The notes under the pieces were generated by a model. The model was not told the DNA's origin. It saw only the letters and a list, made by a program, of their open reading frames with translations, and made no database searches. A program made the translations under genes and the position numbers. Positions 16,858 to 64,000 of a stretch of DNA of 64,000 bases are shown here, piece after piece (position 1 is the stretch's first letter; the number at the start of each line of letters is the position of its first letter). The DNA comes from Siphonodentalium dalli (taxonomy: Eukaryota; Mollusca; Scaphopoda; Gadilida; Siphonodentaliidae): NCBI GenBank assembly GCA_032622095.1, contig CP136062.1, positions 2,108,001 to 2,172,000 of the forward strand. Reading direction: 5' to 3'.

Positions 16858-16931
16858 GAAACATTCTTTGTGATCCCGGAGCAAATCATAATGTGTACAC
16901 AATGTTCCTGTCGGTAAACCGTAAACCGTTA

Positions 16932-17275: not shown

Positions 17276-18393
17276 TAGTCCGAGGAAGAAAATTTGACAG
17301 GGTTGGACATATATTTTTACACTGGGGTGGGGGCAATATTTTCGCAATTTTTTTTTATTATTGACATTCATCTATTTAAGTATGTAGATTCCCTGAACGA
17401 AAACAAACCCATACCGGAAAGGATTTTTGTAATCCGAGAAGAAATGCAAGAGTTACGGGCCCTCAAAGTTTGCAATTTGGTCCCATGTGCTTGTGACCCT
17501 ATCTCCTCCGAAGATGTCGAACTTTGGATGTCGTCTGATATCCCAGTGCGTGCGGTCTGAAGAGAGCACGCGATGGGCCAAATTTTGCCAGTGTCGGTTC
17601 AGTGTTGTGGGTCAGGGGAGGGGTGGTCCGGGGTACCAATTTTGTATTCTTCTCCGAATCGGATGAAACTTGGAATATAACATCCATACCGCCAACCGAT
17701 CTAGAAACTGAAAGAATTTCGAAAATCCATTGAAAAATGTCAGAGTTGTGGACCTTCAAACAATGCAAATTTGGCCCCATATGCTTGTGATCACATCTCC
17801 TCCGAAGATGTCAAACTTTGGATGTCAACTGATACGCCAATGCGTGCGGTCTGAAGAGAGCACGCGATGAGCCAAATTTTGCCAGTGTCGGTTCAGTGTT
17901 GTGGGTCAGGGGAGGGGTGGTCCGGGATACCAAAATTTATTTCATCTCCGAATCATATGAAACTTGATATATAACATATACCATACACGTTGATCATAAA
18001 ACTGAAAACAGATTGTAAATCCGTTAAAAAATGGCGGAGATTTGGGCCCTCAAACTTTGAATGTGGGCCCGTATTCTTTCCAATAAACAAAATGTTATTC
18101 GTCTCTGAATCAGACAAAATTTATAACAAATAATCAATGTAAGTAGCTGATCACAATACTCAAAACAATTTTTAAATCCATTGGAAAATAACGGAGTTAC
18201 GGGCTCTCAAAATTCGCATTTTGGGCCGGGTTTGACTATTTCCCAATCCCGTCACCCAATTTCGAGGCAGGGGTGGGGTCACTCCCAAACACTTGAGATC
18301 AACCCACACATGTTAAGGGAAAGATATAATCATCCTAATTCATATTTTCCGTCCCTTAACTGCGATTTATTGAGCTCATGATTTGCCCTATTA
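17276..18393 (+). repeat. Truncated D unit
   Basis: Colinear with 37766-38884 in element III (offset about 20,490 bp) with few differences. It contains two diverged internal copies of a roughly 300-bp subrepeat (CATCTCCTCCGAAGAT, GAGAGCACGCGATG, GGTCAGGGGAGGGGTGGTCC). It lacks the first half of the unit. Confidence 0.85.
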
Positions 18394-18604
18394 TTATACT
18401 TCCATGGTGTAACCAAGGAAGTATATTGTTTTTCTACTGCGGCCGTTTTCTGTTTAATTGGAAATACTCAGAAACTAATGGGAGGAGGACCGCGAAATCT
18501 CTAGCGAATGTAGGCATCTAAGGTCTACTAAAAATAATGCTATCCGGATGTTGGTCCAATATATTTTGACAGAGTTATGGCCCTTTTTCGATTATTTTTC
18601 ATTA
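18394..18604 (+). repeat. D mini-unit
   Basis: Starts with the D-type hairpin (TATACTTCCATGGT, GTA, ACCAAGGAAGTATA). It ends after GAGTTATGGCCCTTTTTCG in an ATT-rich stretch, 211 bp later, where array A begins. Similar mini-units precede the D2 and B arrays (40662-40890, 46223-46460). Confidence 0.85.
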
Positions 18605-21600
18605 TTATACTTCCATATTTTAATATGGGAGTATATTGTATTTCTGTTGACCCAGTTTTCCGTTTAATTGCAAGTATTCCGAAACTAATGACAGTAGGAA
18701 CGCAAAATTTTCAGGAAATGTAGGCACCTAAGAGTTACTGAAGTTATAGGTATCCCCAGTTCGGCCCAACTTTTCTTTAAGGGGTTATCGCACTTTTAAA
18801 TTTTTTTTTTTATTTTTCTCTATTATTATTCTTCTTCTTCCTAGTAAAAGCGTACCCTTATATCTCAGGAACCGCTAAATGTAGAACGCTGAAATTGTCT
18901 GGGTTTGTACAACTCCCACAGTAGACGGAAGTGTTTCTATTGCGAATTTTGTCCGTTCTTGATTTATGGAGTTATGGGCCTTAAACCGGCCTCTCGCATT
19001 TATCGACAACTGTAGGGTATATCTCGAACGCATTGAGGCAGTGGAACGGGACAAATGTTATGATGTAGAGAAACTTAAACGTGGTTCAGTTCCACAAAAT
19101 GGACGTTGTCCGATTATTAACCGTGGAGTGGGGGACGGTGTTCAAAGTCGTAAAAAATAAAGTCCCTTCGATTGCGACCATACTTACATGTCATAGTCTA
19201 CATTGTACACCGATAACGATGCCGTGAATATTTTGTAAATCGGTCGAAAATTGACAGAGTTACCGACCCCTGAATGTCCAAAAATGACGCAAAAATCCTT
19301 GTGTCCACAACTCCTCCCAGACCGATGCTCGGACAAAGGTTGTTGTTATCAATTAACGATCGGTATGCACGAATGAGCAGGCACGCGAAATTTGGGCATC
19401 ATCGGGCGAAAATTGGCTAGATGCATGCAGATTGAAGTGCTAACATTTGACACTTATACAAGTTTAGAACCCGTTAACGCAGATGAATGGGGTTGGTGTC
19501 ATTCGACGGGGATTATCGAGGCGAATACAATGATGTCAGATTGAAAATAATATTTCGGCGAATAGCTGAGATATGGTCATTTTTTCGAAGTTATGTGTGG
19601 ATATTCACACGCAAATATGCCTATCGTGTAGATCTCACGAAGACGAACTCAATGACACCAGTCGCAACACTCTAGCTTAAAAACCGACTGAGATAGAGAG
19701 GTTTTATCACCAAGTCACCTATTGTCGCGGTAATGGCATTTTCGCATAGAAATGGCTCCACTGAACTCAGAAATGCCAATATTACTTATGCTGACCATCA
19801 CAAACAATTTCAGCAGGTACATTATTATACTTCCATATTTTAATATGGGAGTATATTGTATTTCTGTTGACCCAGTTTTCCGTTTAATTGCAAGTATTCC
19901 GAAACTAATGACAGTAGGAACGCAAAATTTTCAGGAAATGTAGGCACCTAAGAGTTACTGAAGTTATAGGTATCCCCAGTTCGGCCCAACTTTTCTTTAA
20001 GGGGTTATCGCACTTTTAAAAAAAATATTTTATTTTTCTCTATTATTATTCTTCTTCTTCCTAGTGAAAGCGTACCCTTATATCTCAGGAACCGCTAAAT
20101 GTAGAACGCTGAAATTTTCTGGGTTTGTACAACTCCCACAGTAGACGGAAGTGTTTCTATTGCGAATTTTGTCCGTTCTTGATTTATGGAGTTATGGGCC
20201 TTAAACCGGCCTCTCGCATTTATCGACAACTGTAGGGTATATCTCGAACGCATTGAGGCAGTGGAACGGGACAAATGTTATGATGTAGAGAAACTTAAAC
20301 GTGGTTCAGTTCCACAAAATGGACGTTGTCCGATTATTAACCGTGGAGTGGGGGACGGTGTTCAAAGTCGTAAAAAATAAAGTCCCTTCGATTGCGACCA
20401 TACTTACATGTCATAGTCTACATTGTACACCGATAACGATGCCGTGAATATTTTGTAAATCGGTCGAAAATTGACAGAGTTACCGACCCCTGAATGTCCA
20501 AAAATGACGCAAAAATCCTTGTGTCCACAACTCCTCCCAGACCGATGCTCGGACAAAGGTTGTTGTTATCAATTAACGATCGGTATGCACGAATGAGCAG
20601 GCACGCGAAATTTGGGCATCATCGGGCGAAAATTGGCTAGATGCATGCAGATTGAAGTGCTGAAATTTGACACTTATACAAGTTTAGAACCCGTTAACGC
20701 AGATGAATGGGGTTGGTGTCATTCGACGGGGATTATCGAGGCGAATACAATGATGTCAGATTGAAAATAATATTTCGGCGAATAGCTGAGATATGGTCAT
20801 TTTTTCGAAGTTATGTGTGGATATTCACACGCAAATATGCCTATCGTGTAGATCTCACGAAGACGAACTCAATGACACCAGTCGCAACACTCTAGCTTAA
20901 AAACCGACTGAGATAGAGAGGTTTTATCACCAAGTCACCTATTGTCGCGGTAATGGCATTTTCGCATAGAAATGGCTCCACTGAACTCAGAAATGCCAAT
21001 ATTACTTATGCTGACCATCACAAACAATTTCAGCAGGTACATTATTATACTTCCATATTTTAATATGGGAGTATATTGTATTTCTGTTGACCCAGTTTTC
21101 CGTTTAATTGCAAGTATTCCGAAACTAATGACAGTAGGAACGCAAAATTTTCAGGAAATGTAGGCACCTAAGAGTTACTGAAGTTATAGGTATCCCCAGT
21201 TCGGCCCAACTTTTCTTTAAGGGGTTATCGCACTTTTAAATTTTTTTTATTATTTTTCTCTATTATTATTCTTCTTCTTCCTAGTAAAAGCGTACCCTTA
21301 TATCTCAGGAACCGCTAAATGTAGAACGCTGAAATTTTCTGGGTTTGTACAACTCCCACAGTAGACGGAAGTGTTTCTATTGCGAATTTTGTCCGTTCTT
21401 GATTTATGGAGTTATGGGCCTTAAACCGGCCTCTCGCATTTATCGACAACTGTAGGGTATATCTCGAACGCATTGAGGCAGTGGAACGGGACAAATGTTA
21501 TGATGTAGAGAAACTTAAACGTGGTAGAGTTCCACAAAATGGACGTTGTCCGATTATTAACCGTGGAGTGGGGGACGGTGTTCAAAGTCGTAAAAAATAA

Positions 21601-24600
21601 AGTCCCTTCGATTGCGACCATACTTACATGTCATAGTCTACATTGTACACCGATAACGATGCCGTGAATATTTTGTAAATCGGTCGAAAATTGACAGAGT
21701 TACCGACCCCTGAATGTCCAAAAATGACGCAAAAATCCTTGTGTCCACAACTCCTCCCAGACCGATGCTCGGACAAAGGTTGTTGTTATCAATTAACGAT
21801 CGGTATGCACGAATGAGCAGGCACGCGAAATTTGGGCATCATCGGGCGAAAATTGGCTAGATGCATGCAGATTGAAGTGCTAACATTTGACACTTATACA
21901 AGTTTAGAACCCGTTAACGCAGATGAATGGGGTTGGTGTCATTCGACGGGGATTATCGAGGCGAATACAATGATGTCAGATTGAAAATAATATTTCGGCG
22001 AATAGCTGAGATATGGTCATTTTTTCGAAGTTATGTGTGGATATTCACACGCAAATATGCCTATCGTGTAGATCTCACGAAGACGAACTCAATGACACCA
22101 GTCGCAACACTCTAGCTTAAAAACCGACTGAGATAGAGAGGTTTTATCACCAAGTCACCTATTGTCGCGGTAATGGCATTTTCGCATAGAAATGGCTCCA
22201 CTGAACTCAGAAATGCCAATATTACTTATGCTGACCATCACAAACAATTTCAGCAGGTACATTATTATACTTCCATATTTTAATATGGGAGTATATTGTA
22301 TTTCTGTTGACCCAGTTTTCCGTTTAATTGCAAGTATTCCGAAACTAATGACAGTAGGAACGCAAAATTTTCAGGAAATGTAGGCACCTAAGAGTTACTG
22401 AAGTTATAGGTATCCCCAGTTCGGCCCAACTTTTCTTTAAGGGGTTATCGCACTTTTAAAAAAAATATTTTATTTTTCTCTATTATTATTCTTCTTCTTC
22501 CTAGTGAAAGCGTACCCTTATATCTCAGGAACCGCTAAATGTAGAACGCTGAAATTTTCTGGGTTTGTACAACTCCCACAGTAGACGGAAGTGTTTCTAT
22601 TGCGAATTTTGTCCGTTCTTGATTTATGGAGTTATGGGCCTTAAACCGGCCTCTCGCATTTATCGACAACTGTAGGGTATATCTCGAACGCATTGAGGCA
22701 GTGGAACGGGACAAATGTTATGATGTAGAGAAACTTAAACGTGGTTCAGTTCCACAAAATGGACGTTGTCCGATTATTAACCGTGGAGTGGGGGACGGTG
22801 TTCAAAGTCGTAAAAAATAAAGTCCCTTCGATTGCGACCATACTTACATGTCATAGTCTACATTGTACACCGATAACGATGCCGTGAATATTTTGTAAAT
22901 CGGTCGAAAATTGACAGAGTTACCGACCCCTGAATGTCCAAAAATGACGCAAAAATCCTTGTGTCCACAACTCCTCCCAGACCGATGCTCGGACAAAGGT
23001 TGTTGTTATCAATTAACGATCGGTATGCACGAATGAGCAGGCACGCGAAATTTGGGCATCATCGGGCGAAAATTGGCTAGATGCATGCAGATTGAAGTGC
23101 TGAAATTTGACACTTATACAAGTTTAGAACCCGTTAACGCAGATGAATGGGGTTGGTGTCATTCGACGGGGATTATCGAGGCGAATACAATGATGTCAGA
23201 TTGAAAATAATATTTCGGCGAATAGCTGAGATATGGTCATTTTTTCGAAGTTATGTGTGGATATTCACACGCAAATATGCCTATCGTGTAGATCTCACGA
23301 AGACGAACTCAATGACACCAGTCGCAACACTCTAGCTTAAAAACCGACTGAGATAGAGAGGTTTTATCACCAAGTCACCTATTGTCGCGGTAATGGCATT
23401 TTCGCATAGAAATGGCTCCACTGAACTCAGAAATGCCAATATTACTTATGCTGACCATCACAAACAATTTCAGCAGGTACATTATTATACTTCCATATTT
23501 TAATATGGGAGTATATTGTATTTCTGTTGACCCAGTTTTCCGTTTAATTGCAAGTATTCCGAAACTAATGACAGTAAGAACGCAAAATTTTCAGGAAATG
23601 TAGGCACCTAAGAGTTACTGAAGTTATAGGTATCCCCAGTTCGGCCCAACTTTTCTTTAAGGGGTTATCGCACTTTTTAAAAAAATAATTTATTTTTCTC
23701 TATTATTATTCTTCTTCTTCCTAGTAAAAGCGTACCCTTATATCTCAGGAACCGCTAAATGTAGAACGCTGAAATTTTCTGGGTTTGTACAACTCCCACA
23801 GTAGACGGAAGTGTTTCTATTGCGAATTTTGTCCGTTCTTGATTTATGGAGTTATGGGCCTTAAACCGGCCTCTCGCATTTATCGACAACTGTAGGGTAT
23901 ATCTCGAACGCATTGAGGCAGTGGAACGGGACAAATGTTATGATGTAGAGAAACTTAAACGTGGTTCAGTTCCACAAAATGGACGTTGTCCGATTATTAA
24001 CCGTGGAGTGGGGGACGGTGTTCAAAGTCGTAAAAAATAAAGTCCCTTCGATTGCGACCATACTTACATGTCATAGTCTACATTGTACACCGATAACGAT
24101 GCCGTGAATATTTTGTAAATCGGTCGAAAATTGACAGAGTTACCGACCCCTGAATGTCCAAAAATGACGCAAAAATCCTTGTGTCCACAACTCCTCCCAG
24201 ACCGATGCTCGGACAAAGGTTGTTGTTATCAATTAACGATCGGTATGCACGAATGAGCAGGCACGCGAAATTTGGGCATCATCGGGCGAAAATTGGCTAG
24301 ATGCATGCAGATTGAAGTGCTGAAATTTGACACTTATACAAGTTTAGAACCCGTTAACGCAGATGAATGGGGTTGGTGTCATTCGACGGGGATTATCGAG
24401 GCGAATACAATGATGTCAGATTGAAAATAATATTTCGGCGAATAGCTGAGATATGGTCATTTTTTCGAAGTTATGTGTGGATATTCACACGCAAATATGC
24501 CTATCGTGTAGATCTCACGAAGACGAACTCAATGACACCAGTCGCAACACTCTAGCTTAAAAACCGACTGAGATAGAGAGGTTTTATCACCAAGTCACCT

Positions 24601-27600
24601 ATTGTCGCGGTAATGGCATTTTCGCATAGAAATGGCTCCACTGAACTCAGAAATGCCAATATTACTTATGCTGACCATCACAAACAATTTCAGCAGGTAC
24701 ATTATTATACTTCCATATTTTAATATGGGAGTATATTGTATTTCTGTTGACCCAGTTTTCCGTTTAATTGCAAGTATTCCGAAACTAATGACAGTAAGAA
24801 CGCAAAATTTTCAGGAAATGTAGGCACCTAAGAGTTACTGAAGTTATAGGTATCCCCAGTTCGGCCCAACTTTTCTTTAAGGGGTTATCGCACTTTTTAA
24901 AAAAATAATTTATTTTTCTCTATTATTATTCTTCTTCTTCCTAGTAAAAGCGTACCCTTATATCTCAGGAACCGCTAAATGTAGAACGCTGAAATTTTCT
25001 GGGTTTGTACAACTCCCACAGTAGACGGAAGTGTTTCTATTGCGAATTTTGTCCGTTCTTGATTTATGGAGTTATGGGCCTTAAACCGGCCTCTCGCATT
25101 TATCGACAACTGTAGGGTATATCTCGAACGCATTGAGGCAGTGGAACGGGACAAATGTTATGATGTAGAGAAACTTAAACGTGGTTCAGTTCCACAAAAT
25201 GGACGTTGTCCGATTATTAACCGTGGAGTGGGGGACGGTGTTCAAAGTCGTAAAAAATAAAGTCCCTTCGATTGCGACCATACTTACATGTCATAGTCTA
25301 CATTGTACACCGATAACGATGCCGTGAATATTTTGTAAATCGGTCGAAAATTGACAGAGTTACCGACCCCTGAATGTCCAAAAATGACGCAAAAATCCTT
25401 GTGTCCACAACTCCTCCCAGACCGATGCTCGGACAAAGGTTGTTGTTATCAATTAACGATCGGTATGCACGAATGAGCAGGCACGCGAAATTTGGGCATC
25501 ATCGGGCGAAAATTGGCTAGATGCATGCAGATTGAAGTGCTGAAATTTGACACTTATACAAGTTTAGAACCCGTTAACGCAGATGAATGGGGTTGGTGTC
25601 ATTCGACGGGGATTATCGAGGCGAATACAATGATGTCAGATTGAAAATAATATTTCGGCGAATAGCTGAGATATGGTCATTTTTTCGAAGTTATGTGTGG
25701 ATATTCACACGCAAATATGCCTATCGTGTAGATCTCACGAAGACGAACTCAATGACACCAGTCGCAACACTCTAGCTTAAAAACCGACTGAGATAGAGAG
25801 GTTTTATCACCAAGTCACCTATTGTCGCGGTAATGGCATTTTCGCATAGAAATGGCTCCACTGAACTCAGAAATGCCAATATTACTTATGCTGACCATCA
25901 CAAACAATTTCAGCAGGTACATTATTATACTTCCATATTTTAATATGGGAGTATATTGTATTTCTGTTGACCCAGTTTTCCGTTTAATTGCAAGTATTCC
26001 GAAACTAATGACAGTAAGAACGCAAAATTTTCAGGAAATGTAGGCACCTAAGAGTTACTGAAGTTATAGGTATCCCCAGTTCGGCCCAACTTTTCTTTAA
26101 GGGGTTATCGCACTTTTTAAAAAAATAATTTATTTTTCTCTATTATTATTCTTCTTCTTCCTAGTAAAAGCGTACCCTTATATCTCAGGAACCGCTAAAT
26201 GTAGAACGCTGAAATTTTCTGGGTTTGTACAACTCCCACAGTAGACGGAAGTGTTTCTATTGCGAATTTTGTCCGTTCTTGATTTATGGAGTTATGGGCC
26301 TTAAACCGGCCTCTCGCATTTATCGACAACTGTAGGGTATATCTCGAACGCATTGAGGCAGTGGAACGGGACAAATGTTATGATGTAGAGAAACTTAAAC
26401 GTGGTTCAGTTCCACAAAATGGACGTTGTCCGATTATTAACCGTGGAGTGGGGGACGGTGTTCAAAGTCGTAAAAAATAAAGTCCCTTCGATTGCGACCA
26501 TACTTACATGTCATAGTCTACATTGTACACCGATAACGATGCCGTGAATATTTTGTAAATCGGTCGAAAATTGACAGAGTTACCGACCCCTGAATGTCCA
26601 AAAATGACGCAAAAATCCTTGTGTCCACAACTCCTCCCAGACCGATGCTCGGACAAAGGTTGTTGTTATCAATTAACGATCGGTATGCACGAATGAGCAG
26701 GCACGCGAAATTTGGGCATCATCGGGCGAAAATTGGCTAGATGCATGCAGATTGAAGTGCTGAAATTTGACACTTATACAAGTTTAGAACCCGTTAACGC
26801 AGATGAATGGGGTTGGTGTCATTCGACGGGGATTATCGAGGCGAATACAATGATGTCAGATTGAAAATAATATTGCGGCGAATAGCTGAGATATGGTCAT
26901 TTTTTCGAAGTTATGTGTGGATATTCACACGCAAATATGCCTATCGTGTAGATCTCACGAAGACGAACTCAATGACACCAGTCGCAACACTCTAGCTTAA
27001 AAACCGACTGAGATAGAGAGGTTTTATCACCAAGTCACCTATTGTCGCGGTAATGGCATTTTCGCATAGAAATGGCTCCACTGAACTCAGAAATGCCAAT
27101 ATTACTTATGCTGACCATCACAAACAATTTCAGCAGGTACATTATTATACTTCCATATTTTAATATGGGAGTATATTGTATTTCTGTTGACCCAGTTTTC
27201 CGTTTAATTGCAAGTATTCCGAAACTAATGACAGTAAGAACGCAAAATTTTCAGGAAATGTAGGCACCTAAGAGTTACTGAAGTTATAGGTATCCCCAGT
27301 TCGGCCCAACTTTTCTTTAAGGGGTTATCGCACTTTTTAAAAAAATAATTTATTTTTCTCTATTATTATTCTTCTTCTTCCTAGTAAAAGCGTACCCTTA
27401 TATCTCAGGAACCGCTAAATGTAGAACGCTGAAATTTTCTGGGTTTGTACAACTCCCACAGTAGACGGAAGTGTTTCTATTGCGAATTTTGTCCGTTCTT
27501 GATTTATGGAGTTATGGGCCTTAAACCGGCCTCTCGCATTTATCGACAACTGTAGGGTATATCTCGAACGCATTGAGGCAGTGGAACGGGACAAATGTTA

Positions 27601-30600
27601 TGATGTAGAGAAACTTAAACGTGGTTCAGTTCCACAAAATGGACGTTGTCCGATTATTAACCGTGGAGTGGGGGACGGTGTTCAAAGTCGTAAAAAATAA
27701 AGTCCCTTCGATTGCGACCATACTTACATGTCATAGTCTACATTGTACACCGATAACGATGCCGTGAATATTTTGTAAATCGGTCGAAAATTGACAGAGT
27801 TACCGACCCCTGAATGTCCAAAAATGACGCAAAAATCCTTGTGTCCACAACTCCTCCCAGACCGATGCTCGGACAAAGGTTGTTGTTATCAATTAACGAT
27901 CGGTATGCACGAATGAGCAGGCACGCGAAATTTGGGCATCATCGGGCGAAAATTGGCTAGATGCATGCAGATTGAAGTGCTGAAATTTGACACTTATACA
28001 AGTTTAGAACCCGTTAACGCAGATGAATGGGGTTGGTGTCATTCGACGGGGATTATCGAGGCGAATACAATGATGTCAGATTGAAAATAATATTTCGGCG
28101 AATAGCTGAGATATGGTCATTTTTTCGAAGTTATGTGTGGATATTCACACGCAAATATGCCTATCGTGTAGATCTCACGAAGACGAACTCAATGACACCA
28201 GTCGCAACACTCTAGCTTAAAAACCGACTGAGATAGAGAGGTTTTATCACCAAGTCACCTATTGTCGCGGTAATGGCATTTTCGCATAGAAATGGCTCCA
28301 CTGAACTCAGAAATGCCAATATTACTTATGCTGACCATCACAAACAATTTCAGCAGGTACATTATTATACTTCCATATTTTAATATGGGAGTATATTGTA
28401 TTTCTGTTGACCCAGTTTTCCGTTTAATTGCAAGTATTCCGAAACTAATGACAGTAAGAACGCAAAATTTTCAGGAAATGTAGGCACCTAAGAGTTACTG
28501 AAGTTATAGGTATCCCCAGTTCGGCCCAACTTTTCTTTAAGGGGTTATCGCACTTTTTAAAAAAATAATTTATTTTTCTCTATTATTATTCTTCTTCTTC
28601 CTAGTAAAAGCGTACCCTTATATCTCAGGAACCGCTAAATGTAGAACGCTGAAATTTTCTGGGTTTGTACAACTCCCACAGTAGACGGAAGTGTTTCTAT
28701 TGCGAATTTTGTCCGTTCTTGATTTATGGAGTTATGGGCCTTAAACCGGCCTCTCGCATTTATCGACAACTGTAGGGTATATCTCGAACGCATTGAGGCA
28801 GTGGAACGGGACAAATGTTATGATGTAGAGAAACTTAAACGTGGTTCAGTTCCACAAAATGGACGTTGTCCGATTATTAACCGTGGAGTGGGGGACGGTG
28901 TTCAAAGTCGTAAAAAATAAAGTCCCTTCGATTGCGACCATACTTACATGTCATAGTCTACATTGTACACCGATAACGATGCCGTGAATATTTTGTAAAT
29001 CGGTCGAAAATTGACAGAGTTACCGACCCCTGAATGTCCAAAAATGACGCAAAAATCCTTGTGTCCACAACTCCTCCCAGACCGATGCTCGGACAAAGGT
29101 TGTTGTTATCAATTAACGATCGGTATGCACGAATGAGCAGGCACGCGAAATTTGGGCATCATCGGGCGAAAATTGGCTAGATGCATGCAGATTGAAGTGC
29201 TGAAATTTGACACTTATACAAGTTTAGAACCCGTTAACGCAGATGAATGGGGTTGGTGTCATTCGACGGGGATTATCGAGGCGAATACAATGATGTCAGA
29301 TTGAAAATAATATTGCGGCGAATAGCTGAGATATGGTCATTTTTTCGAAGTTATGTGTGGATATTCACACGCAAATATGCCTATCGTGTAGATCTCACGA
29401 AGACGAACTCAATGACACCAGTCGCAACACTCTAGCTTAAAAACCGACTGAGATAGAGAGGTTTTATCACCAAGTCACCTATTGTCGCGGTAATGGCATT
29501 TTCGCATAGAAATGGCTCCACTGAACTCAGAAATGCCAATATTACTTATGCTGACCATCACAAACAATTTCAGCAGGTACATTATTATACTTCCATATTT
29601 TAATATGGGAGTATATTGTATTTCTGTTGACCCAGTTTTCCGTTTAATTGCAAGTATTCCGAAACTAATGACAGTAAGAACGCAAAATTTTCAGGAAATG
29701 TAGGCACCTAAGAGTTACTGAAGTTATAGGTATCCCCAGTTCGGCCCAACTTTTCTTTAAGGGGTTATCGCACTTTTTAAAAAAATAATTTATTTTTCTC
29801 TATTATTATTCTTCTTCTTCCTAGTAAAAGCGTACCCTTATATCTCAGGAACCGCTAAATGTAGAACGCTGAAATTTTCTGGGTTTGTACAACTCCCACA
29901 GTAGACGGAAGTGTTTCTATTGCGAATTTTGTCCGTTCTTGATTTATGGAGTTATGGGCCTTAAACCGGCCTCTCGCATTTATCGACAACTGTAGGGTAT
30001 ATCTCGAACGCATTGAGGCAGTGGAACGGGACAAATGTTATGATGTAGAGAAACTTAAACGTGGTTCAGTTCCACAAAATGGACGTTGTCCGATTATTAA
30101 CCGTGGAGTGGGGGACGGTGTTCAAAGTCGTAAAAAATAAAGTCCCTTCGATTGCGACCATACTTACATGTCATAGTCTACATTGTACACCGATAACGAT
30201 GCCGTGAATATTTTGTAAATCGGTCGAAAATTGACAGAGTTACCGACCCCTGAATGTCCAAAAATGACGCAAAAATCCTTGTGTCCACAACTCCTCCCAG
30301 ACCGATGCTCGGACAAAGGTTGTTGTTATCAATTAACGATCGGTATGCACGAATGAGCAGGCACGCGAAATTTGGGCATCATCGGGCGAAAATTGGCTAG
30401 ATGCATGCAGATTGAAGTGCTGAAATTTGACACTTATACAAGTTTAGAACCCGTTAACGCAGATGAATGGGGTTGGTGTCATTCGACGGGGATTATCGAG
30501 GCGAATACAATGATGTCAGATTGAAAATAATATTTCGGCGAATAGCTGAGATATGGTCATTTTTTCGAAGTTATGTGTGGATATTCACACGCAAATATGC

Positions 30601-33011: not shown

Positions 33012-33057
33012 TATGGAAGTATACGAATTTCCCACCGGGAATTCGAAAAGCCGCTAG
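33012..33057 (+). other. 3' terminus of element I: arm, hairpin, CTAG
   Basis: TATGGAAGTATA (33012-33023) is the inverse of the left arm of the unit hairpins. A stem CGAATTTCCC/GGGAATTCG (33024-33045, one bulged T, loop ACC) follows, then 8 nt, then CTAG at 33054-33057. The next base is T, the start of element II. Confidence 0.8.

Positions 33058-39092: not shown

Positions 39093-39137
<45 letters not shown>

Positions 39138-46430: not shown

Positions 46431-46460
<30 letters not shown>
46223..46460 (+). repeat. D mini-unit of element IV
   Basis: D-type hairpin plus about 200 bp, ending in an uninterrupted (TTA)n run at about 46433-46460, directly before array B. Confidence 0.85.
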
Positions 46461-46465
<5 letters not shown>

Positions 46466-52400: not shown

Positions 52401-55400
52401 GAAATGTTCTGATCGCCTGTTCTCACATAGCAAGAAAGATAGCTGGATTTAGTTTCTATGGTAGTGCTGGCCGTTGTCAATATACTTCACAAAAATAATT
52501 TGGACAGGGTCGGACTTACATTTTTTGGTTAGGGTGGGGGCGAAATTTTCGCAATTTTATTTTTGCGATGATTTCAACCATTTTACTACCATGTATCTTT
52601 AGGACGTACTAATGATCCTCCTGAAAGAATTTTGTAAATCGGTTGAGAAATGTCCAAGTTACAGACCATCGAATATTATATTCATACATTGGCTGAGGAG
52701 AAAGTGGTTGTGAGCACAACTCCTCCTAAACGACGCAAATGAGCAGGATTTGGTTTATGTGAGCGTGTTACTCATAGAGAGAAGACGAACTGGTGCAATT
52801 TTTACCAAGATCCAAAAATATTTGTCCCTATTAGGGAGGGGGCAAAAATTGTAATTTTTTTGTCGTCTTCGATTCGAACCAAAATTGTTGTGAAGTATCT
52901 ATAGGACGTTCTGGGAGTACTCCAGACAGAATTTTGTAAATCGGTTGAAAAATGTAGAAATTGTGGCCCATTAATTCTTATAAAGTTTACACAAGATACA
53001 CTATGGATTTAAATTCCTACAACCAATCGTCACTTTTTTGGTGTCATTCGATGGAGAATTTCTAGTACTTCTAAATAATTACCTACTTACCGTATTATAT
53101 TGATGGAAGCCAGAGATAATCGAAATGTATACACTGAACAGCATATATATAGGCCTACATAGTAGAATATTGCCACAATATCTTACTAAAACCCTACTAT
53201 ATAATAAAGGGGCATCAATTGCGAACACAATGCCGCAAAAATTAGCTCGATATCTCGAAAATTGGCCGAGATATGGTGACTTTTCTACCCGCGTCACCTA
53301 ATTCCGAGGTATGGGTGGGGGTCACACCAGAAGGTTCCAACTGAACACAGAAATGTCAAGAAACCGTACTATGGACATAACAATCAATTCCGCGCGATTT
53401 CCTAATTATACTTCCATGTTTTACATGGAAGTATATTGTTTTTGTGATTTTTATTTTTCTCTATTATTATTATTCTTTAATCTTCTTAGCAATTTTATAA
53501 TGAGCATAGCTCAGTCAATACAAGAGTTAGAAAGCTAAAACTTTGTATGTATATATATGTATACAAACTCTAGTGCTTAGGCCTATTGAGAATCATGTCC
53601 TCACTTGATTTGCAGAGTTATCTCCCTTTATGTGAACAATTGGTGTTTTCAGAACTCCGAAAATATAAGGAGTACAGCACTGAAATTTGGTCGATACATA
53701 CATCTTGATATCCACTGAATCATGAGCACATCACAAACTCTGTCCGTCTTTCCTCTCCAGAGTTATCTCCCATATATATGTCAACCTCGAAATGTTCTGA
53801 TCGCCTGTTCTCACATAGCAAGAAAGATAGCTGGATTTAGTTTCTATGGTAGTGCTGGCCGTTGTCAATATACTTCACAAAAATAATTTGGACAGGGTCG
53901 GACTTACATTTTTTGGTTAGGGTGGGGGCGAAATTTTCGCAATTTTATTTTTGCGATGATTTCAACCATTTTACTACCATGTATCTTTAGGACGTACTAA
54001 TGATCCTCCTGAAAGAATTTTGTAAATCGGTTGAGAAATGTCCAAGTTACAGACCATCGAATATTATATTCATACATTGGCTGAGGAGAAAGTGGTTGTG
54101 AGCACAACTCCTCCTAAACGACGCAAATGAGCAGGATTTGGTTTATGTGAGCGTGTTACTCATAGAGAGAAGACGAACTGGTGCAATTTTTACCAAGATC
54201 CAAAAATATTTGTCCCTATTAGGGAGGGGGCAAAAATTGTAATTTTTTTGTCGTCTTCGATTCGAACCAAAATTGTTGTGAAGTATCTATAGGACGTTCT
54301 GGGAGTACTCCAGACAGAATTTTGTAAATCGGTTGAAAAATGTAGAAATTGTGGCCCATTAATTCTTATAAAGTTTACACAAGATACACTATGGATTTAA
54401 ATTCCTACAACCAATCGTCACTTTTTTGGTGTCATTCGATGGAGAATTTCTAGTACTTCTAAATAATTACCTACTTACCGTATTATATTGATGGAAGCCA
54501 GAGATAATCGAAATGTATACACTGAACAGCATATATATAGGCCTACATAGTAGAATATTGCCACAATATCTTACTAAAACCCTACTATATAATAAAGGGG
54601 CGTCAATTGCGAACACAATGCCGCAAAAATTAGCTCGATATCTCGAAAATTGGCCGAGATATGGTGACTTTTCTACCCGCGTCACCTAATTCCGAGGTAT
54701 GGGTGGGGGTCACACCAGAAGGTTCCAACTGAACACAGAAATGTCAAGAAACCGTACTATGGACATAACAATCAATTCCGCGCGATTTCCTAATTATACT
54801 TCCATGTTTTACATGGAAGTATATTGTTTTTGTGATTTTTATTTTTCTCTATTATTATTATTCTTTATTCTTCTTAGCAATTTTATAATGAGCATAGCTC
54901 AGTCAATACAAGAGTTAGAAAGCTAAAACTTTGTATGTATATATATGTATACAAACTCTAGTGCTTAGGCCTATTGAGAATTATGTCCTCACTTGATTTG
55001 CAGAGTTATCTCCCTTTATGTGAACAATTGGTGTTTTCAGAACTCCGAAAATATAAGGAGTACAGCACTGAAATTTGGTCGATACATACATCTTCATATC
55101 CACTGAATCATGAGCACATCACAAACTCTGTCCGTCTTTCCTCTCCAGAGTTATCTCCCATATATATGTCAACCTCGAAATGTTCTGATCGCCTGTTCTC
55201 ACATAGCAAGAAAGATAGCTGGATTTAGTTTCTATGGTAGTGCTGGCCGTTGTCAATATACTTCACAAAAATAATTTGGACAGGGTCGGACTTACATTTT
55301 TTGGTTAGGGTGGGGGCGAAATTTTCGCAATTTTATTTTTGCGATGATTTCAACCATTTTTACTACCATGTATCTTTAGGACGTACTAATGATCCTCCTG

Positions 55401-58400
55401 AAAGAATTTTGTAAATCGGTTGAGAAATGTCCAAGTTACAGACCATCGAATATTATATTCATACATTGGCTGAGGAGAAAGTGGTTGTGAGCACAACTCC
55501 TCCTAAACGACGCAAATGAGCAGGATTTGGTTTATGTGAGCGTGTTACTCATAGAGAGAAGACGAACTGGTGCAATTTTTACCAAGATCCAAAAATATTT
55601 GTCCCTATTAGGGAGGGGGCAAAAATTGTAATTTTTTTGTCGTCTTCGATTCGAACCAAAATTGTTGTGAAGTATCTATAGGACGTTCTGGGAGTACTCC
55701 AGACAGAATTTTGTAAATCGGTTGAAAAATGTAGAAATTGTGGCCCATTAATTCTTATAAAGTTTACACAAGATACACTATGGATTTAAATTCCTACAAC
55801 CAATCGTCACTTTTTTGGTGTCATTCGATGGAGAATTTCTAGTACTTCTAAATAATTACCTACTTACCGTATTATATTGATGGAAGCCAGAGATAATCGA
55901 AATGTATACACTGAACAGCATATATATAGGCCTACATAGTAGAATATTGCCACAATATCTTACTAAAACCCTACTATATAATAAAGGGGCATCAATTGCG
56001 AACACAATGCCGCAAAAATTAGCTCGATATCTCGAAAATTGGCCGAGATATGGTGACTTTTCTACCCGCGTCACCTAATTCCGAGGTATGGGTGGGGGTC
56101 ACACCAGAAGGTTCCAACTGAACACAGAAATGTCAAGAAACCGTACTATGGACATAACAATCAATTCCGCGCGATTTCCTAATTATACTTCCATGTTTTA
56201 CATGGAAGTATATTGTTTTTGTGATTTTTATTTTTCTCTATTATTATTATTCTTTATTCTTCTTAGCAATTTTATAATGAGCATAGCTCAGTCAATACAA
56301 GAGTTAGAAAGCTAAAACTTTGTATGTATATATATGTATACAAACTCTAGTGCTTAGGCCTATTGAGAATCATGTCCTCACTTGATTTGCAGAGTTATCT
56401 CCCTTTATGTGAACAATTGGTGTTTTCAGAACTCCGAAAATATAAGGAGTACAGCACTGAAATTTGGTCGATACATACATCTTGATATCCACTGAATCAT
56501 GAGCACATCACAAACTCTGTCCGTCTTTCCTCTCCAGAGTTATCTCCCATATATATGTCAACCTCGAAATGTTCTGATCGCCTGTTCTCACATAGCAAGA
56601 AAGATAGCTGGATTTAGTTTCTATCGTAGTGCTGGCCGTTGTCAATATACTTCACAAAAATAATTTGGACAGGGTCGGACTTACATTTTTTGGTTAGGGT
56701 GGGGGCGAAATTTTCGCAATTTTATTTTTGCGATGATTTCAACCATTTTTACTACCATGTATCTTTATGACGTACTAATGATCCTCCTGAAAGAATTTTG
56801 TAAATCGGTTGAGAAATGTCCAAGTTACAGACCATCGAATATTATATTCATACATTGGCTGAGGAGAAAGTGGTTGTGAGCACAACTCCTCCTAAACGAC
56901 GCAAATGAGCAGGATTTGGTTTATGTGAGCGTGTTACTCATAGAGAGAAGACGAACTGGTGCAATTTTTACCAAGATCCAAAAATATTTGTCCCTATTAG
57001 GGAGGGGGCAAAAATTGTAATTTTTTTGTCGTCTTCGATTCGAACCAAAATTGTTGTGAAGTATCTATAGGACGTTCTGGGAGTACTCCAGACAGAATTT
57101 TGTAAATCGGTTGAAAAATGTAGAAATTGTGGCCCATTAATTCTTATAAAGTTTACACAAGATACACTATGGATTTAAATTCCTACAACCAATCGTCACT
57201 TTTTTGGTGTCATTCGATGGAGAATTTCTAGTACTTCTAAATAATTACCTACTTACCGTATTATATTGATGGAAGCCAGAGATAATCGAAATGTATACAC
57301 TGAACAGCATATATATAGGCCTACATAGTAGAATATTGCCACAATATCTTACTAAAACCCTACTATATAATAAAGGGGCATCAATTGCGAACACAATGCC
57401 GCAAAAATTAGCTCGATATCTCGAAAATTGGCCGAGATATGGTGACTTTTCTACCCGCGTCACCTAATTCCGAGGTATGGGTGGGGGTCACACCAGAAGG
57501 TTCCAACTGAACACAGAAATGTCAAGAAACCGTACTATGGACATAACAATCAATTCCGCGCGATTTCCTAATTATACTTCCATGTTTTACATGGAAGTAT
57601 ATTGTTTTTGTGATTTTTATTTTTCTCTATTATTATTATTCTTTATTCTTCTTAGCAATTTTATAATGAGCATAGCTCAGTCAATACAAGAGTTAGAAAG
57701 CTAAAACTTTGTATGTATATATATGTATACAAACTCTAGTGCTTAGGCCTATTGAGAATCATGTCCTCACTTGATTTGCAGAGTTATCTCCCTTTATGTG
57801 AACAATTGGTGTTTTCAGAACTCCGAAAATATAAGGAGTACAGCACTGAAATTTGGTCGATACATACATCTTGATATCCACTGAATCATGAGCACATCAC
57901 AAACTCTGTCCGTCTTTCCTCTCCAGAGTTATCTCCCATATATATGTCAACCTCGAAATGTTCTGATCGCCTGTTCTCACATAGCAAGAAAGATAGCTGG
58001 ATTTAGTTTCTATCGTAGTGCTGGCCGTTGTCAATATACTTCACAAAAATAATTTGGACAGGGTCGGACTTACATTTTTTGGTTAGGGTGGGGGCGAAAT
58101 TTTCGCAATTTTATTTTTGCGATGATTTCAACCATTTTTACTACCATGTATCTTTAGGACGTACTAATGATCCTCCTGAAAGAATTTTGTAAATCGGTTG
58201 AGAAATGTCCAAGTTACAGACCATCGAATATTATATTCATACATTGGCTGAGGAGAAAGTGGTTGTGAGCACAACTCCTCCTAAACGACGCAAATGAGCA
58301 GGATTTGGTTTATGTGAGCGTGTTACTCATAGAGAGAAGACGAACTGGTGCAATTTTTACCAAGATCCAAAAATATTTGTCCCTATTAGGGAGGGGGCAA

Positions 58401-61400
58401 AAATTGTAATTTTTTTGTCGTCTTCGATTCGAACCAAAATTGTTGTGAAGTATCTATAGGACGTTCTGGGAGTACTCCAGACAGAATTTTGTAAATCGGT
58501 TGAAAAATGTAGAAATTGTGGCCCATTAATTCTTATAAAGTTTACACAAGATACACTATGGATTTAAATTCCTACAACCAATCGTCACTTTTTTGGTGTC
58601 ATTCGATGGAGAATTTCTAGTACTTCTAAATAATTACCTACTTACCGTATTATATTGATGGAAGCCAGAGATAATCGAAATGTATACACTGAACAGCATA
58701 TATATAGGCCTACATAGTAGAATATTGCCACAATATCTTACTAAAACCCTACTATATAATAAAGGGGCATCAATTGCGAACACAATGCCGCAAAAATTAG
58801 CTCGATATCTCGAAAATTGGCCGAGATATGGTGACTTTTCTACCCGCGTCACCTAATTCCGAGGTATGGGTGGGGGTCACACCAGAAGGTTCCAACTGAA
58901 CACAGAAATGTCAAGAAACCGTACTATGGACATAACAATCAATTCCGCGCGATTTCCTAATTATACTTCCATGTTTTACATGGAAGTATATTGTTTTTGT
59001 GATTTTTATTTTTCTCTATTATTATTATTCTTTATTCTTCTTAGCAATTTTATAATGAGCATAGCTCAGTCAATACAAGAGTTAGAAAGCTAAAACTTTG
59101 TATGTATATATATGTATACAAACTCTAGTGCTTAGGCCTATTGAGAATCATGTCCTCACTTGATTTGCAGAGTTATCTCCCTTTATGTGAACAATTGGTG
59201 TTTTCAGAACTCCGAAAATATAAGGAGTACAGCACTGAAATTTGGTCGATACATACATCTTGATATCCACTGAATCATGAGCACATCACAAACTCTGTCC
59301 GTCTTTCCTCTCCAGAGTTATCTCCCATATATATGTCAACCTCGAAATGTTCTGATCGCCTGTTCTCACATAGCAAGAAAGATAGCTGGATTTAGTTTCT
59401 ATGGTAGTGCTGGCCGTTGTCAATATACTTCACAAAAATAATTTGGACAGGGTCGGACTTACATTTTTTGGTTAGGGTGGGGGCGAAATTTTCGCAATTT
59501 TATTTTTGCGATGATTTCAACCATTTTTACTACCATGTATCTTTAGGACGTACTAATGATCCTCCTGAAAGAATTTTGTAAATCGGTTGAGAAATGTCCA
59601 AGTTACAGACCATCGAATATTATATTCATACATTGGCTGAGGAGAAAGTGGTTGTGAGCACAACTCCTCCTAAACGACGCAAATGAGCAGGATTTGGTTT
59701 ATGTGAGCGTGTTACTCATAGAGAGAAGACGAACTGGTGCAATTTTTACCAAGATCCAAAAATATTTGTCCCTATTAGGGAGGGGGCAAAAATTGTAATT
59801 TTTTTGTCGTCTTCGATTCGAACCAAAATTGTTGTGAAGTATCTATAGGACGTTCTGGGAGTACTCCAGACAGAATTTTGTAAATCGGTTGAAAAATGTA
59901 GAAATTGTGGCCCATTAATTCTTATAAAGTTTACACAAGATACACTATGGATTTAAATTCCTACAACCAATCGTCACTTTTTTGGTGTCATTCGATGGAG
60001 AATTTCTAGTACTTCTAAATAATTACCTACTTACCGTATTATATTGATGGAAGCCAGAGATAATCGAAATGTATACACTGAACAGCATATATATAGGCCT
60101 ACATAGTAGAATATTGCCACAATATCTTACTAAAACCCTACTATATAATAAAGGGGCATCAATTGCGAACACAATGCCGCAAAAATTAGCTCGATATCTC
60201 GAAAATTGGCCGAGATATGGTGACTTTTCTACCCGCGTCACCTAATTCCGAGGTATGGGTGGGGGTCACACCAGAAGGTTCCAACTGAACACAGAAATGT
60301 CAAGAAACCGTACTATGGACATAACAATCAATTCCGCGCGATTTCCTAATTATACTTCCATGTTTTACATGGAAGTATATTGTTTTTGTGATTTTTATTT
60401 TTCTCTATTATTATTATTCTTTATTCTTCTTAGCAATTTTATAATGAGCATAGCTCAGTCAATACAAGAGTTAGAAAGCTAAAACTTTGTATGTATATAT
60501 ATGTATACAAACTCTAGTGCTTAGGCCTATTGAGAATCATGTCCTCACTTGATTTGCAGAGTTATCTCCCTTTATGTGAACAATTGGTGTTTTCAGAACT
60601 CCGAAAATATAAGGAGTACAGCACTGAAATTTGGTCGATACATACATCTTGATATCCACTGAATCATGAGCACATCACAAACTCTGTCCGTCTTTCCTCT
60701 CCAGAGTTATCTCCCATATATATGTCAACCTCGAAATGTTCTGATCGCCTGTTCTCACATAGCAAGAAAGATAGCTGGATTTAGTTTCTATGGTAGTGCT
60801 GGCCGTTGTCAATATACTTCACAAAAATAATTTGGACAGGGTCGGACTTACATTTTTTGGTTAGGGTGGGGGCGAAATTTTCGCAATTTTATTTTTGCGA
60901 TGATTTCAACCATTTTTACTACCATGTATCTTTAGGACGTACTAATGATCCTCCTGAAAGAATTTTGTAAATCGGTTGAGAAATGTCCAAGTTACAGACC
61001 ATCGAATATTATATTCATACATTGGCTGAGGAGAAAGTGGTTGTGAGCACAACTCCTCCTAAACGACGCAAATGAGCAGGATTTGGTTTATGTGAGCGTG
61101 TTACTCATAGAGAGAAGACGAACTGGTGCAATTTTTACCAAGATCCAAAAATATTTGTCCCTATTAGGGAGGGGGCAAAAATTGTAATTTTTTTGTCGTC
61201 TTCGATTCGAACCAAAATTGTTGTGAAGTATCTATAGGACGTTCTGGGAGTACTCCAGACAGAATTTTGTAAATCGGTTGAAAAATGTAGAAATTGTGGC
61301 CCATTAATTCTTATAAAGTTTACACAAGATACACTATGGATTTAAATTCCTACAACCAATCGTCACTTTTTTGGTGTCATTCGATGGAGAATTTCTAGTA

Positions 61401-64000
61401 CTTCTAAATAATTACCTACTTACCGTATTATATTGATGGAAGCCAGAGATAATCGAAATGTATACACTGAACAGCATATATATAGGCCTACATAGTAGAA
61501 TATTGCCACAATATCTTACTAAAACCCTACTATATAATAAAGGGGCATCAATTGCGAACACAATGCCGCAAAAATTAGCTCGATATCTCGAAAATTGGCC
61601 GAGATATGGTGACTTTTCTACCCGCGTCACCTAATTCCGAGGTATGGGTGGGGGTCACACCAGAAGGTTCCAACTGAACACAGAAATGTCAAGAAACCGT
61701 ACTATGGACATAACAATCAATTCCGCGCGATTTCCTAATTATACTTCCATGTTTTACATGGAAGTATATTGTTTTTGTGATTTTTATTTTTCTCTATTAT
61801 TATTATTCTTTATTCTTCTTAGCAATTTTATAATGAGCATAGCTCAGTCAATACAAGAGTTAGAAAGCTAAAACTTTGTATGTATATATATGTATACAAA
61901 CTCTAGTGCTTAGGCCTATTGAGAATCATGTCCTCACTTGATTTGCAGAGTTATCTCCCTTTATGTGAACAATTGGTGTTTTCAGAACTCCGAAAATATA
62001 AGGAGTACAGCACTGAAATTTGGTCGATACATACATCTTGATATCCACTGAATCATGAGCCCATCACAAACTCTGTCCGTCTTTCCTCTCCAGAGTTATC
62101 TCCCATATATATGTCAACCTCGAAATGTTCTGATCGCCTGTTCTCACATAGCAAGAAAGATAGCTGGATTTAGTTTCTATGGTAGTGCTGGCCGTTGTCA
62201 ATATACTTCACAAAAATAATTTGGACAGGGTCGGACTTACATTTTTTGGTTAGGGTGGGGGCGAAATTTTCGCAATTTTATTTTTGCGATGATTTCAACC
62301 ATTTTTACTACCATGTATCTTTAGGACGTACTAATGATCCTCCTGAAAGAATTTTGTAAATCGGTTGAGAAATGTCCAAGTTACAGACCATCGAATATTA
62401 TATTCATACATTGGCTGAGGAGAAAGTGGTTGTGAGCACAACTCCTCCTAAACGACGCAAATGAGCAGGATTTGGTTTATGTGAGCGTGTTACTCATAGA
62501 GAGAAGACGAACTGGTGCAATTTTTACCAAGATCCAAAAATATTTGTCCCTATTAGGGAGGGGGCAAAAATTGTAATTTTTTTGTCGTCTTCGATTCGAA
62601 CCAAAATTGTTGTGAAGTATCTATAGGACGTTCTGGGAGTACTCCAGACAGAATTTTGTAAATCGGTTGAAAAATGTAGAAATTGTGGCCCATTAATTCT
62701 TATAAAGTTTACACAAGATACACTATGGATTTAAATTCCTACAACCAATCGTCACTTTTTTGGTGTCATTCGATGGAGAATTTCTAGTACTTCTAAATAA
62801 TTACCTACTTACCGTATTATATTGATGGAAGCCAGAGATAATCGAAATGTATACACTGAACAGCATATATATAGGCCTACATAGTAGAATATTGCCACAA
62901 TATCTTACTAAAACCCTACTATATAATAAAGGGGCATCAATTGCGAACACAATGCCGCAAAAATTAGCTCGATATCTCGAAAATTGGCCGAGATATGGTG
63001 ACTTTTCTACCCGCGTCACCTAATTCCGAGGTATGGGTGGGGGTCACACCAGAAGGTTCCAACTGAACACAGAAATGTCAAGAAACCGTACTATGGACAT
63101 AACAATCAATTCCGCGCGATTTCCTAATTATACTTCCATGTTTTACATGGAAGTATATTGTTTTTGTGATTTTTATTTTTCTCTATTATTATTATTCTTT
63201 ATTCTTCTTAGCAATTTTATAATGAGCATAGCTCAGTCAATACAAGAGTTAGAAAGCTAAAACTTTGTATGTATATATATGTATACAAACTCTAGTGCTT
63301 AGGCCTATTGAGAATCATGTCCTCACTTGATTTGCAGAGTTATCTCCCTTTATGTGAACAATTGGTGTTTTCAGAACTCCGAAAATATAAGGAGTACAGC
63401 ACTGAAATTTGGTCGATACATACATCTTGATATCCACTGAATCATGAGCCCATCACAAACTCTGTCCGTCTTTCCTCTCCAGAGTTATCTCCCATATATA
63501 TGTCAACCTCGAAATGTTCTGATCGCCTGTTCTCACATAGCAAGAAAGATAGCTGGATTTAGTTTCTATGGTAGTGCTGGCCGTTGTCAATATACTTCAC
63601 AAAAATAATTTGGACAGGGTCGGACTTACATTTTTTGGTTAGGGTGGGGGCGAAATTTTCGCAATTTTATTTTTGCGATGATTTCAACCATTTTTACTAC
63701 CATGTATCTTTAGGACGTACTAATGATCCTCCTGAAAGAATTTTGTAAATCGGTTGAGAAATGTCCAAGTTACAGACCATCGAATATTATATTCATACAT
63801 TGGCTGAGGAGAAAGTGGTTGTGAGCACAACTCCTCCTAAACGACGCAAATGAGCAGGATTTGGTTTATGTGAGCGTGTTACTCATAGAGAGAAGACGAA
63901 CTGGTGCAATTTTTACCAAGATCCAAAAATATTTGTCCCTATTAGGGAGGGGGCAAAAATTGTAATTTTTTTGTCGTCTTCGATTCGAACCAAAATTGTT
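46461..64000 (+). repeat. Array B: 1389-bp satellite-like unit, at least 12.6 near-identical copies
   Basis: Units start at 46461, 47851, 49240, 50629, 52018, 53406, 54794, 56183, 57572, 58961, 60350, 61739 and 63128; the last runs off the window. Lengths are 1390 (first), 1388 (fifth and sixth, one T lost in ATTTTTACTACC) and 1389 otherwise. The hairpin is TATACTTCCATGT, TTT, ACATGGAAGTATA; the first copy differs by one extra C. Recurring 72- and 75-codon frames are by-products of the repetition. The unit is related to unit C. Confidence 0.97.

What the first reader, a model, noticed from the sequence alone, without database searches (positions are those of the whole stretch)
17276..64000. 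Four Helitron-like elements joined head to tail with exact CTAG|TTAT junctions
Three different palindromic hairpins are each followed, after 6-8 nt, by CTAG (33054-33057, 37356-37359, 44675-44678). In all three cases the very next base starts another element with TTAT. The signature of a hairpin before CTAG with T following is the known 3' end of Helitrons. Sharing the junction base for base, with no filler, is what rolling-circle read-through or repeated insertion at an existing end would give. About 47 kb of the window is built this way.
Basis: partly seen in the sequence, partly recalled or inferred. Interest (0 to 1): 0.9.

Follow-up and report, generated by a model that had tools for sequence, protein, structure and literature searches.

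The report
Nested Helentron-like elements in own microsatellites
This stretch of an animal genome is a pile of related rolling-circle jumping elements that landed inside one another, mostly in a short TTA repeat that the elements themselves carry, so the striking shared junctions mark a favourite landing site and not elements copied head to tail.

Summary
The three CTAG|TTAT junctions exist as described, each behind a short palindrome and an ATGGAAGTAT motif. The ends are real genome-wide: three different 3' ends recur 1071, 96 and 105 times, with 0 hits for each reversed control. But what follows CTAG is the target, not the start of another element. The near-invariant rule is CTAG|TT (100/100, 93/96, 98/100 listed copies); TTAT follows only 56/100, 26/96 and 42/100. 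At 37356 and 44675 the TTAT is the (TTA)n microsatellite of an older tandem array that resumes after the inserted element. The array's other half stands upstream, with matching subtype, and uninterrupted copies of the site exist. Only 33054 joins one element's end to another's start; among 100 listed copies of that 3' end no other does. The ends (5' subTIR + inverted repeat, microsatellite, 3' subTIR + palindrome, TT target) fit non-autonomous Helentrons (HINEs), with a CTAG terminus as reported for oyster intermediates. The partner enzyme is untested: the Rep/helicase search did not complete. Known kind, new families; the built-in landing pad is the interesting part.

The parts
17265..18385 (+). 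Host A array: body ('AM'), truncated on its left
   Evidence: 94.7% to AM 37378-38879
18396..18600 (+). Host A array: 5' head and left flank (LF, ATACTTCCATGG..CCAAGGAAGTAT), interrupted in its TTA microsatellite
18605..33057 (+). Inserted element 1: 1220-bp units x 10.6 (18600-31483 by TRF), each full unit with a 5' head, then 3' region E1 ending in palindrome-CTAG
   Evidence: E1 tail 105 copies genome-wide
33058..37359 (+). Inserted element 2: head TTATACTTCCATATTTTAATATGGAAGTAT, 1392-bp unit x ~1.5, 3' region E2 ending in palindrome-CTAG
37360..37377 (+). (TTA)n where the host A array resumes (the 'TTAT' of junction 37356)
37378..38879 (+). Host A array body
38887..39081 (+). Host A array head and left flank
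39082..39156 (+). Uninterrupted LF-(TTA)n-AM site: the empty form of the target site
39156..40885 (+). Host A array body, head and left flank, interrupted in its (TTA)n at about 40885
40886..44678 (+). Inserted element 3: complete two-unit A-type element of another subtype (ACTCGACAC), ending in palindrome-CTAG (E3)
   Evidence: E3 tail 1071 copies
44679..44713 (+). (TTA)n where the host A array resumes (the 'TTAT' of junction 44675)
44714..46460 (+). Host A array body, head, left flank and (TTA)n, interrupted again
46461..64000 (+). Inserted element 4: 1389-bp units x 17.3 continuing 6.5 kb past the window, 3' end E4 8355 bp past the window edge, followed by TTTTTCTC, not TTAT

Best explanation
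The region is a nest of non-autonomous Helentron-like (HINE-type) elements with CTAG 3' ends. An element starts with a head (TTATACTTCCAT-loop-ATGGAAGTAT) followed by a left flank with a (TTA)n microsatellite, and ends with ATGGAAGTAT, a palindrome and CTAG. Insertion puts the CTAG end directly in front of a TT in T-rich DNA, and (TTA)n is a favoured form of that target. Because the elements carry (TTA)n shortly behind their own head, new copies often land there. That splits an older element into LF-(TTA) | new element CTAG | (TTA)-body and produces the CTAG|TTAT junctions. Shown: the ends, the TT rule, the two-sided interrupted array, uninterrupted sites and dispersed copies. Inferred: rolling-circle transposition by a Rep/helicase supplied in trans; that the nuclease prefers TTAT-like sites because its own 5' cleavage site is |TTAT; and that the multi-headed 1.2-1.8 kb arrays arose by rolling-circle copying of templates that had lost the 3' terminator, or by unequal crossing-over.
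For: Two-sided interruption: in the window and L020-L023, 6 left flanks are interrupted by a head; 5 can be followed to a tail, and in 4 of these 5 the body resumed after CTAG has the subtype of the interrupted flank (window 18581/37375 and 40849/44711; L020 2248/6101; L021 3744/6310); 20 of 20 uninterrupted units there keep the same pairing. In two of the four the inserted element is of another A subtype. Empty sites: uninterrupted LF-(TTA)n-AM joints in the window and in L020-L023. Target: 100/100, 93/96 and 98/100 listed tails followed by TT; the 53 distinct E3 flanks that start with neither (TTA)4 nor a head still have TTATTATTnnTTTT as commonest letters. Left junctions exist: of 100 listed heads (of 5594) I read 12 as preceded by LF/(TTA)n, 3 by a CTAG tail, 83 as array-internal, 2 as other. 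A second family shows the same: three 65-bp heads in a row, then (TTA)n, body, tail | (TTA)n, body, tail. Two isolated copies whose left end I could see have T-rich DNA on both sides (L025, L027), but they were picked for a (TTA)n behind CTAG.
Against: One of the five interrupted flanks (46410) does not close: element 4 ends at L009:8355 and is followed by position 49 of another 1389-bp array, not by the A body. The sixth (L020 9541) runs off the stretch. For two further tails (L022 6155, L023 5772) the interrupted flank lies outside the fetched DNA. The host A array has no own 5' start at 17265 and switches subtype inside 37378-39081. In the C4 cluster heads and tails are unequal (6 tails between two heads in L015), so nesting alone does not explain it. 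In L031 three heads follow one another behind a tail, which nesting allows but does not prove. The E3 flank statistics come from the first 100 listed of 1071 places, all on contig C1. For E4 and E1 the preference for TTA beyond TT is weak. The subtype labels rest on a few letters, and the LF letter does not separate subtypes ACTGG and ACTCG. The partner enzyme is untested: the PF14214 searches did not complete.
Confidence: 0.83

Rival explanations
1. Rolling-circle read-through or concatemer integration: one transposition event copied past a 3' end, or around a circle, and laid down several elements head to tail.
For: In the C4:138.26 Mb cluster, 1428-bp units each run (TTA)7-body-CTAG in a row (four equal spacings in L016), and L019 has CTAG|head head (TTA)5 body units in tandem. 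Circles with precisely joined ends are documented for Helraiser (PMC4778049, passages).
Against: In the window two junctions resume an interrupted array, and the elements that meet at a junction are of different types. The only end-to-start junction (33054) is the only such case among 100 listed E1 tails.
Confidence: 0.08
2. Sequence-directed insertion right at existing element ends: the 5' nick site |TTAT (or the CTAG end) of a resident element is itself the target, so elements stack end to end. Not exclusive of the best explanation.
For: 33054 and 4 of 100 listed E3 tails are directly followed by a head TTATACTTCC; 3 of 100 listed heads follow a CTAG tail. The start TTAT fits the target consensus.
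Against: It accounts for a few percent of listed tails; more are followed by (TTA)n or other T-rich DNA.
Confidence: 0.07
3. The junctions are products of ectopic or unequal recombination between abundant (TTA)n and head sequences, not of insertion.
For: Element 4's end is joined to the middle of another array's left flank, the same E4|TTTTTCTCTATT joint occurs at three loci, and one A unit is chimeric between subtypes.
Against: Recombination between repeats would not put CTAG precisely before TT in 291 of 296 listed tails of three families, whose flanks are diverse (74 distinct 12-mers for E4, 74 distinct 14-mers for E1).
Confidence: 0.04

Closest known systems
HINEs / Cg_HINE of Crassostrea gigas (PMC7492417) and DINE-1/HINE of arthropods (PMC4067079)
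   Same: 5' subTIR with complementary inverted repeat, microsatellite in the left flank, 3' subTIR followed by a palindrome, internal tandem repeats, T-rich/TT insertion, no coding capacity found in the ORFs tested
   Different: Terminus is CTAG; the large repeat unit (1.2-1.8 kb) contains the whole head, while Cg_HINE central repeats are 140-180 bp (in a study limited to 100-500 bp) and lie behind the left flank; insertion into the element's own microsatellite is frequent here and is not described in the passages I read
CTAG-ended oyster Helitron/Helentron intermediates (PMC7992393, passages)
   Same: CTAG 3' end, 3' hairpin, subTIRs in 257 of 751, IR in a third of those
   Different: The oyster set is described with a 5' TC and (86%) A|T insertion, and only one had a microsatellite; here 5' TT(AT) and nearly invariant TT after CTAG
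Proto-Helentron of Phytophthora infestans (PMC4067079, section 11)
   Same: 5' TT and 3' CTAG
   Different: It is autonomous, about 14 kb; no coding partner is known here
Tandem truncated Helitrons with many 5' ends and one 3' end in plants (Xiong et al. 2016, seen only as described in PMC12628747 and PMC8268682) and multi-terminus Helitrons of maize (PMC3288121) and Fusarium (PMC5148889), passages read
   Same: Many 5' ends per 3' end; nesting proposed as a cause of multiple termini
   Different: Here the landing site is a microsatellite inside the element
Helitron-like elements of Lepidoptera that disrupt (GAAA)n microsatellites (Coates et al. 2010, seen only as a title in reference lists) and fly transposon dimers put down to insertion-site preference (McGurk and Barbash, seen only as described in PMC12628747)
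   Same: Insertion into a microsatellite by a Helitron-like element; tandem copies through target preference
   Different: Whether the microsatellite is carried by the element itself there I could not see

Membership tests
Helentron-associated non-autonomous element (HINE) | 5' subTIR with a nearby complementary inverted repeat | tested here: met
   ATACTTCCAT..ATGGAAGTAT-type hairpins at 33058, 38887, 46461; 0 of 200 shuffles fold as well in each
Helentron-associated non-autonomous element (HINE) | 3' subTIR (inverted copy of the 5' one) followed by a palindrome | tested here: met
   ATGGAAGTAT + palindrome + CTAG at all three window tails and E4
Helentron-associated non-autonomous element (HINE) | Microsatellite in the left flank | tested here: met
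   (TTA)n at the end of the left flank of A units and of the C4 family
Helentron-associated non-autonomous element (HINE) | Insertion at TT in T-rich DNA | tested here: met
   TT after the tail in 100/100, 93/96, 98/100 listed copies
Helentron-associated non-autonomous element (HINE) | No target-site duplication | tested here: inconclusive
   TT stands on both sides of the element, so a 2-bp duplication cannot be told from an element that begins with TT
Helentron-associated non-autonomous element (HINE) | Autonomous partner with Rep/Hel plus endonuclease sharing the ends | not tested
   PF14214 search of the own genome unanswered; 7 of the 20 ORFs of 90 aa or more that one search lists in 17276-64000 were scanned, 0 Pfam matches
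Canonical Helitron (Helitron1) | CTRR 3' end behind a hairpin | tested here: met
   CTAG
Canonical Helitron (Helitron1) | 5' TC end | tested here: not met
   Element start at 33058 is TTATAC; the 100 listed A heads are each preceded by TT (read by eye)
Canonical Helitron (Helitron1) | No terminal inverted repeats | tested here: not met
   subTIR pair ATACTTCCAT / ATGGAAGTAT

The most novel reading that the evidence does not exclude
The microsatellite that HINE-type elements carry behind their 5' end is a built-in landing pad: it mimics the element's own 5' nick site (|TTAT), so new copies are drawn into old ones. This nesting multiplies heads (and in some loci tails) and seeds the long head-containing arrays, which would give the long-noted HINE microsatellite a function and link transposon target choice to the birth of satellite arrays.
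Probability: 0.35. Interest if true: 0.6.

Novelty: new member of a known kind. Interest (0 to 1): 0.4.

Why it matters
The microsatellite next to the 5' end of HINE/DINE-type elements has been noted in flies, moths and oysters (PMC4067079, PMC4344730, PMC7492417) without, in the passages I read, a stated role. A genome with more than a thousand exact copies of one 3' end and about five times as many exact heads allows a direct test of whether that microsatellite is the target for self-insertion, and whether self-insertion is the first step from transposon to satellite array.

Tried and rejected
Considered and rejected: (1) four elements head to tail, as above. (2) CTAG|TTAT as a fixed bipartite junction: rejected by the flank lists. 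(3) Telling from the junctions whether TT belongs to element or target: not possible, TT is on both sides. (4) Finding the left partner of the E4|TTTTTCTC joint: not seen in the window or in L009-L014; a crossover between two nested loci would explain it but is untested. (5) Explaining the C4 cluster by nesting alone: heads and tails do not balance.

Led nowhere: Rfam scan of the window, 0 matches at gathering score; Pfam scan of seven ORFs of the region, 0 matches at E 0.1; paper search for at least four of Helitron, target site, TTAT, microsatellite, self-insertion, 0 papers; paper searches brought no paper that I recognised from its listing as describing insertion of such elements into their own microsatellite (I did not read them all).
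Full report
What was checked. The window is G000:C2:2108001-2172000 of an unnamed 2.23-Gb genome in nine contigs. The three CTAGTTAT junctions are at 33054, 37356 and 44675, + strand only. In all three the sequence before the junction is ATGGAAGTAT, a palindrome, 6-8 nt and CTAG. These hairpins are modest by energy (16, 3 and 6 of 200 shuffles fold as well; in the third the best fold is not the palindrome next to CTAG), while the hairpins of three 5' heads are strong (0 of 200 each).

Anatomy. Self-comparison shows that the region is made of long repeat units. The full units carry a head, ATACTTCCAT-loop-ATGGAAGTAT or close to it, the inverted partner of the ATGGAAGTAT before each 3' end. Four unit types occur: A (about 1.77 kb; head and left flank of about 195 bp, (TTA)n, body of about 1.5 kb containing a 294-bp dimer), B (1220 bp, 10.6 copies), C (1392 bp, about 1.5 copies) and Z (1389 bp, 17.3 copies, running to 6.5 kb past the window). 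Shifted by one unit, the B array is 99.6% and the Z array 99.9% identical to itself. The unit-to-unit joints printed carry no CTAG 3' end. Each array ends in a truncated unit followed by a 3' region (E1-E4) that ends in CTAG.

The order of insertions. Reading left to right: A body, A left flank | B array-E1-CTAG | C array-E2-CTAG | (TTA)n A body, left flank, (TTA)n, A body, left flank | complete two-unit A element of another subtype-E3-CTAG | (TTA)n A body, left flank, (TTA)n | Z array-E4-CTAG | second Z array from unit position 49. The A units before and after elements 1+2, and before and after element 3, read as one array that was cut in its (TTA)n. The uninterrupted joint at 39082-39156, and more in L020-L023, are the empty form of the site. 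One letter in the left flank and two in the body mark A subtypes. In the window and L020-L023, 20 of 20 uninterrupted units keep a regular pairing (15 T-ACTGG, 2 T-ACTCG, 3 G-ACTTG). Six left flanks there are interrupted by a head. Five could be followed to a tail, and in 4 of these 5 the resumed body has the subtype of the interrupted flank (window twice, L020, L021). In two of the four the inserted element is an A element of a different subtype. The fifth, before the Z array, does not close: the Z element's end is joined to the middle of the left flank of a second Z array. That joint is found at three loci and remains unexplained. The sixth runs off L020, and for two further tails (L022, L023) the interrupted flank was not fetched.

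Copies not chosen by their flank. I searched exact 3' ends with free bases behind. E3: 1071 places, reversed control 0; of the 100 listed (all on C1) 100 are followed by TT, 56 by TTAT, 32 by (TTA)4, 4 by a head. E4: 96 places, control 0, all listed; 93 TT, 26 TTAT, 9 (TTA)4. E1: 105 places, control 0; of 100 listed 98 TT, 42 TTAT, 17 (TTA)4, and one head, which is the window's own 33054 junction. The pattern demanded a non-G last base, which drops some copies. The E2 request did not complete. TT has a frequency of about 0.10 and TTAT 0.009 in the window. So the near-fixed rule is CTAG|TT, and TTA-rich DNA is preferred: the 53 distinct E3 flanks that start with neither (TTA)4 nor a head have TTATTATTnnTTTT as commonest letters. 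For E4 and E1 the preference beyond TT is weaker and mainly AT-rich. Of the first 20 E3 loci I judged by eye that 17 are followed by other elements of this group and 3 (L029, L047, L048) by other DNA; all lie in the first 14.3 Mb of C1. Of four copies picked for a (TTA)n behind CTAG (L025-L028), the left end was seen in two, with GTTAATT and AAAAAATTATTATT before the head.

Heads outnumber tails: 5594 exact A heads against 1071 exact E3 tails. The ratio of about 5 is rough, because the two patterns may not have equal sensitivity and other tails may serve A heads. Among the 100 listed heads I read 83 as array-internal, 12 as following a left flank or (TTA)n, 3 as following a CTAG tail and 2 as following other DNA. 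In L031 three heads with left flanks follow one another behind a tail.

A second family. At C4:138.24-138.31 Mb an element with a 65-bp left flank (head ATACTTCAATGTG..) and 318-bp internal repeats shows three heads in a row, (TTA)n, body, tail | (TTA)n, body, tail and so on, and elsewhere tail | two heads (TTA)n body tail. Nesting into the own microsatellite explains the pattern of heads and tails in kind but not in number; tandem duplication or rolling-circle copies of headless circles must be added.

Mechanism. Shown: ends, target rule, interruption with empty sites. Inferred from published models: copying from a 5' end to a 3' end by a HUH Rep/helicase acting in trans (Helraiser, PMC4778049, passages read). 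Multi-headed elements are explained in Fusarium and maize by nesting followed by transposition between an outer and an inner terminus (PMC5148889 and PMC3288121, passages read), and arrays of 5' parts by loss of the terminator from a circular template (Xiong et al. 2016, known to me here only through PMC8268682 and PMC12628747, passages). Insertion of Helitron-like elements into microsatellites, and transposon dimers through target preference, are in print (Coates et al. 2010, title only; McGurk and Barbash, as described in PMC12628747). What I add is that the (TTA)n carried by the element resembles both its own start TTAT and the target consensus, and so acts as its landing site. The resemblance is measured; that one nuclease specificity underlies it is a guess.

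Classification. By ends and target these fit HINEs (PMC4067079 passages and section 11; PMC7492417 abstract, sections 7 and 9 and part 1 of section 10), with CTAG as in the oyster intermediates (PMC7992393 passages) and TT...CTAG as in the proto-Helentron. They fail two features of canonical Helitrons (5' TC, no inverted repeats). The partner enzyme was not tested. The host looks like a mollusc by a recalled motif (GAGTTATCTCCCTTT) and by the resemblance to oyster elements; no call established it.

Limits. One assembly, no reads; arrays of 99.9% identity depend on that assembly. The odds given for the explanations are not strictly exclusive.

Noticed in passing
L009:8355 (8.4 kb past the window) and C1:252162654, C3:299137992: The E4 3' end is joined to TTTTTCTCTATT, position 49 of the Z unit, at three loci; the missing first 48 bases of that unit were not seen upstream in the window.
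   Followed up: partly
G000:C4:138236000-138315999 (L015-L019, five 10-kb stretches of it): Cluster of a second family with 1428-bp tail-to-(TTA)n units and multiple 65-bp heads; candidate for rolling-circle concatemers of headless circles.
   Followed up: partly
G000:C5:86817281-86839994: Four E1 tails with the same flank, spaced 6.7-8.0 kb: local duplication of an insertion together with its target.
   Followed up: no
14198-17277: 95-aa ORF stretches repeated two to three times at 91-97% identity just left of the A array; weak glycosyltransferase family 92 similarity below the Pfam cut-off.
   Followed up: partly
6946-7620: Fragment with a Mutator-like transposase match, E 1.9e-11.
   Followed up: no
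C1:0-0.35 Mb and 5.3-5.6 Mb: Dense runs of A heads with a period of about 1.73 kb near the start of contig C1, suggesting regional (perhaps subtelomeric) build-up of these arrays.
   Followed up: no
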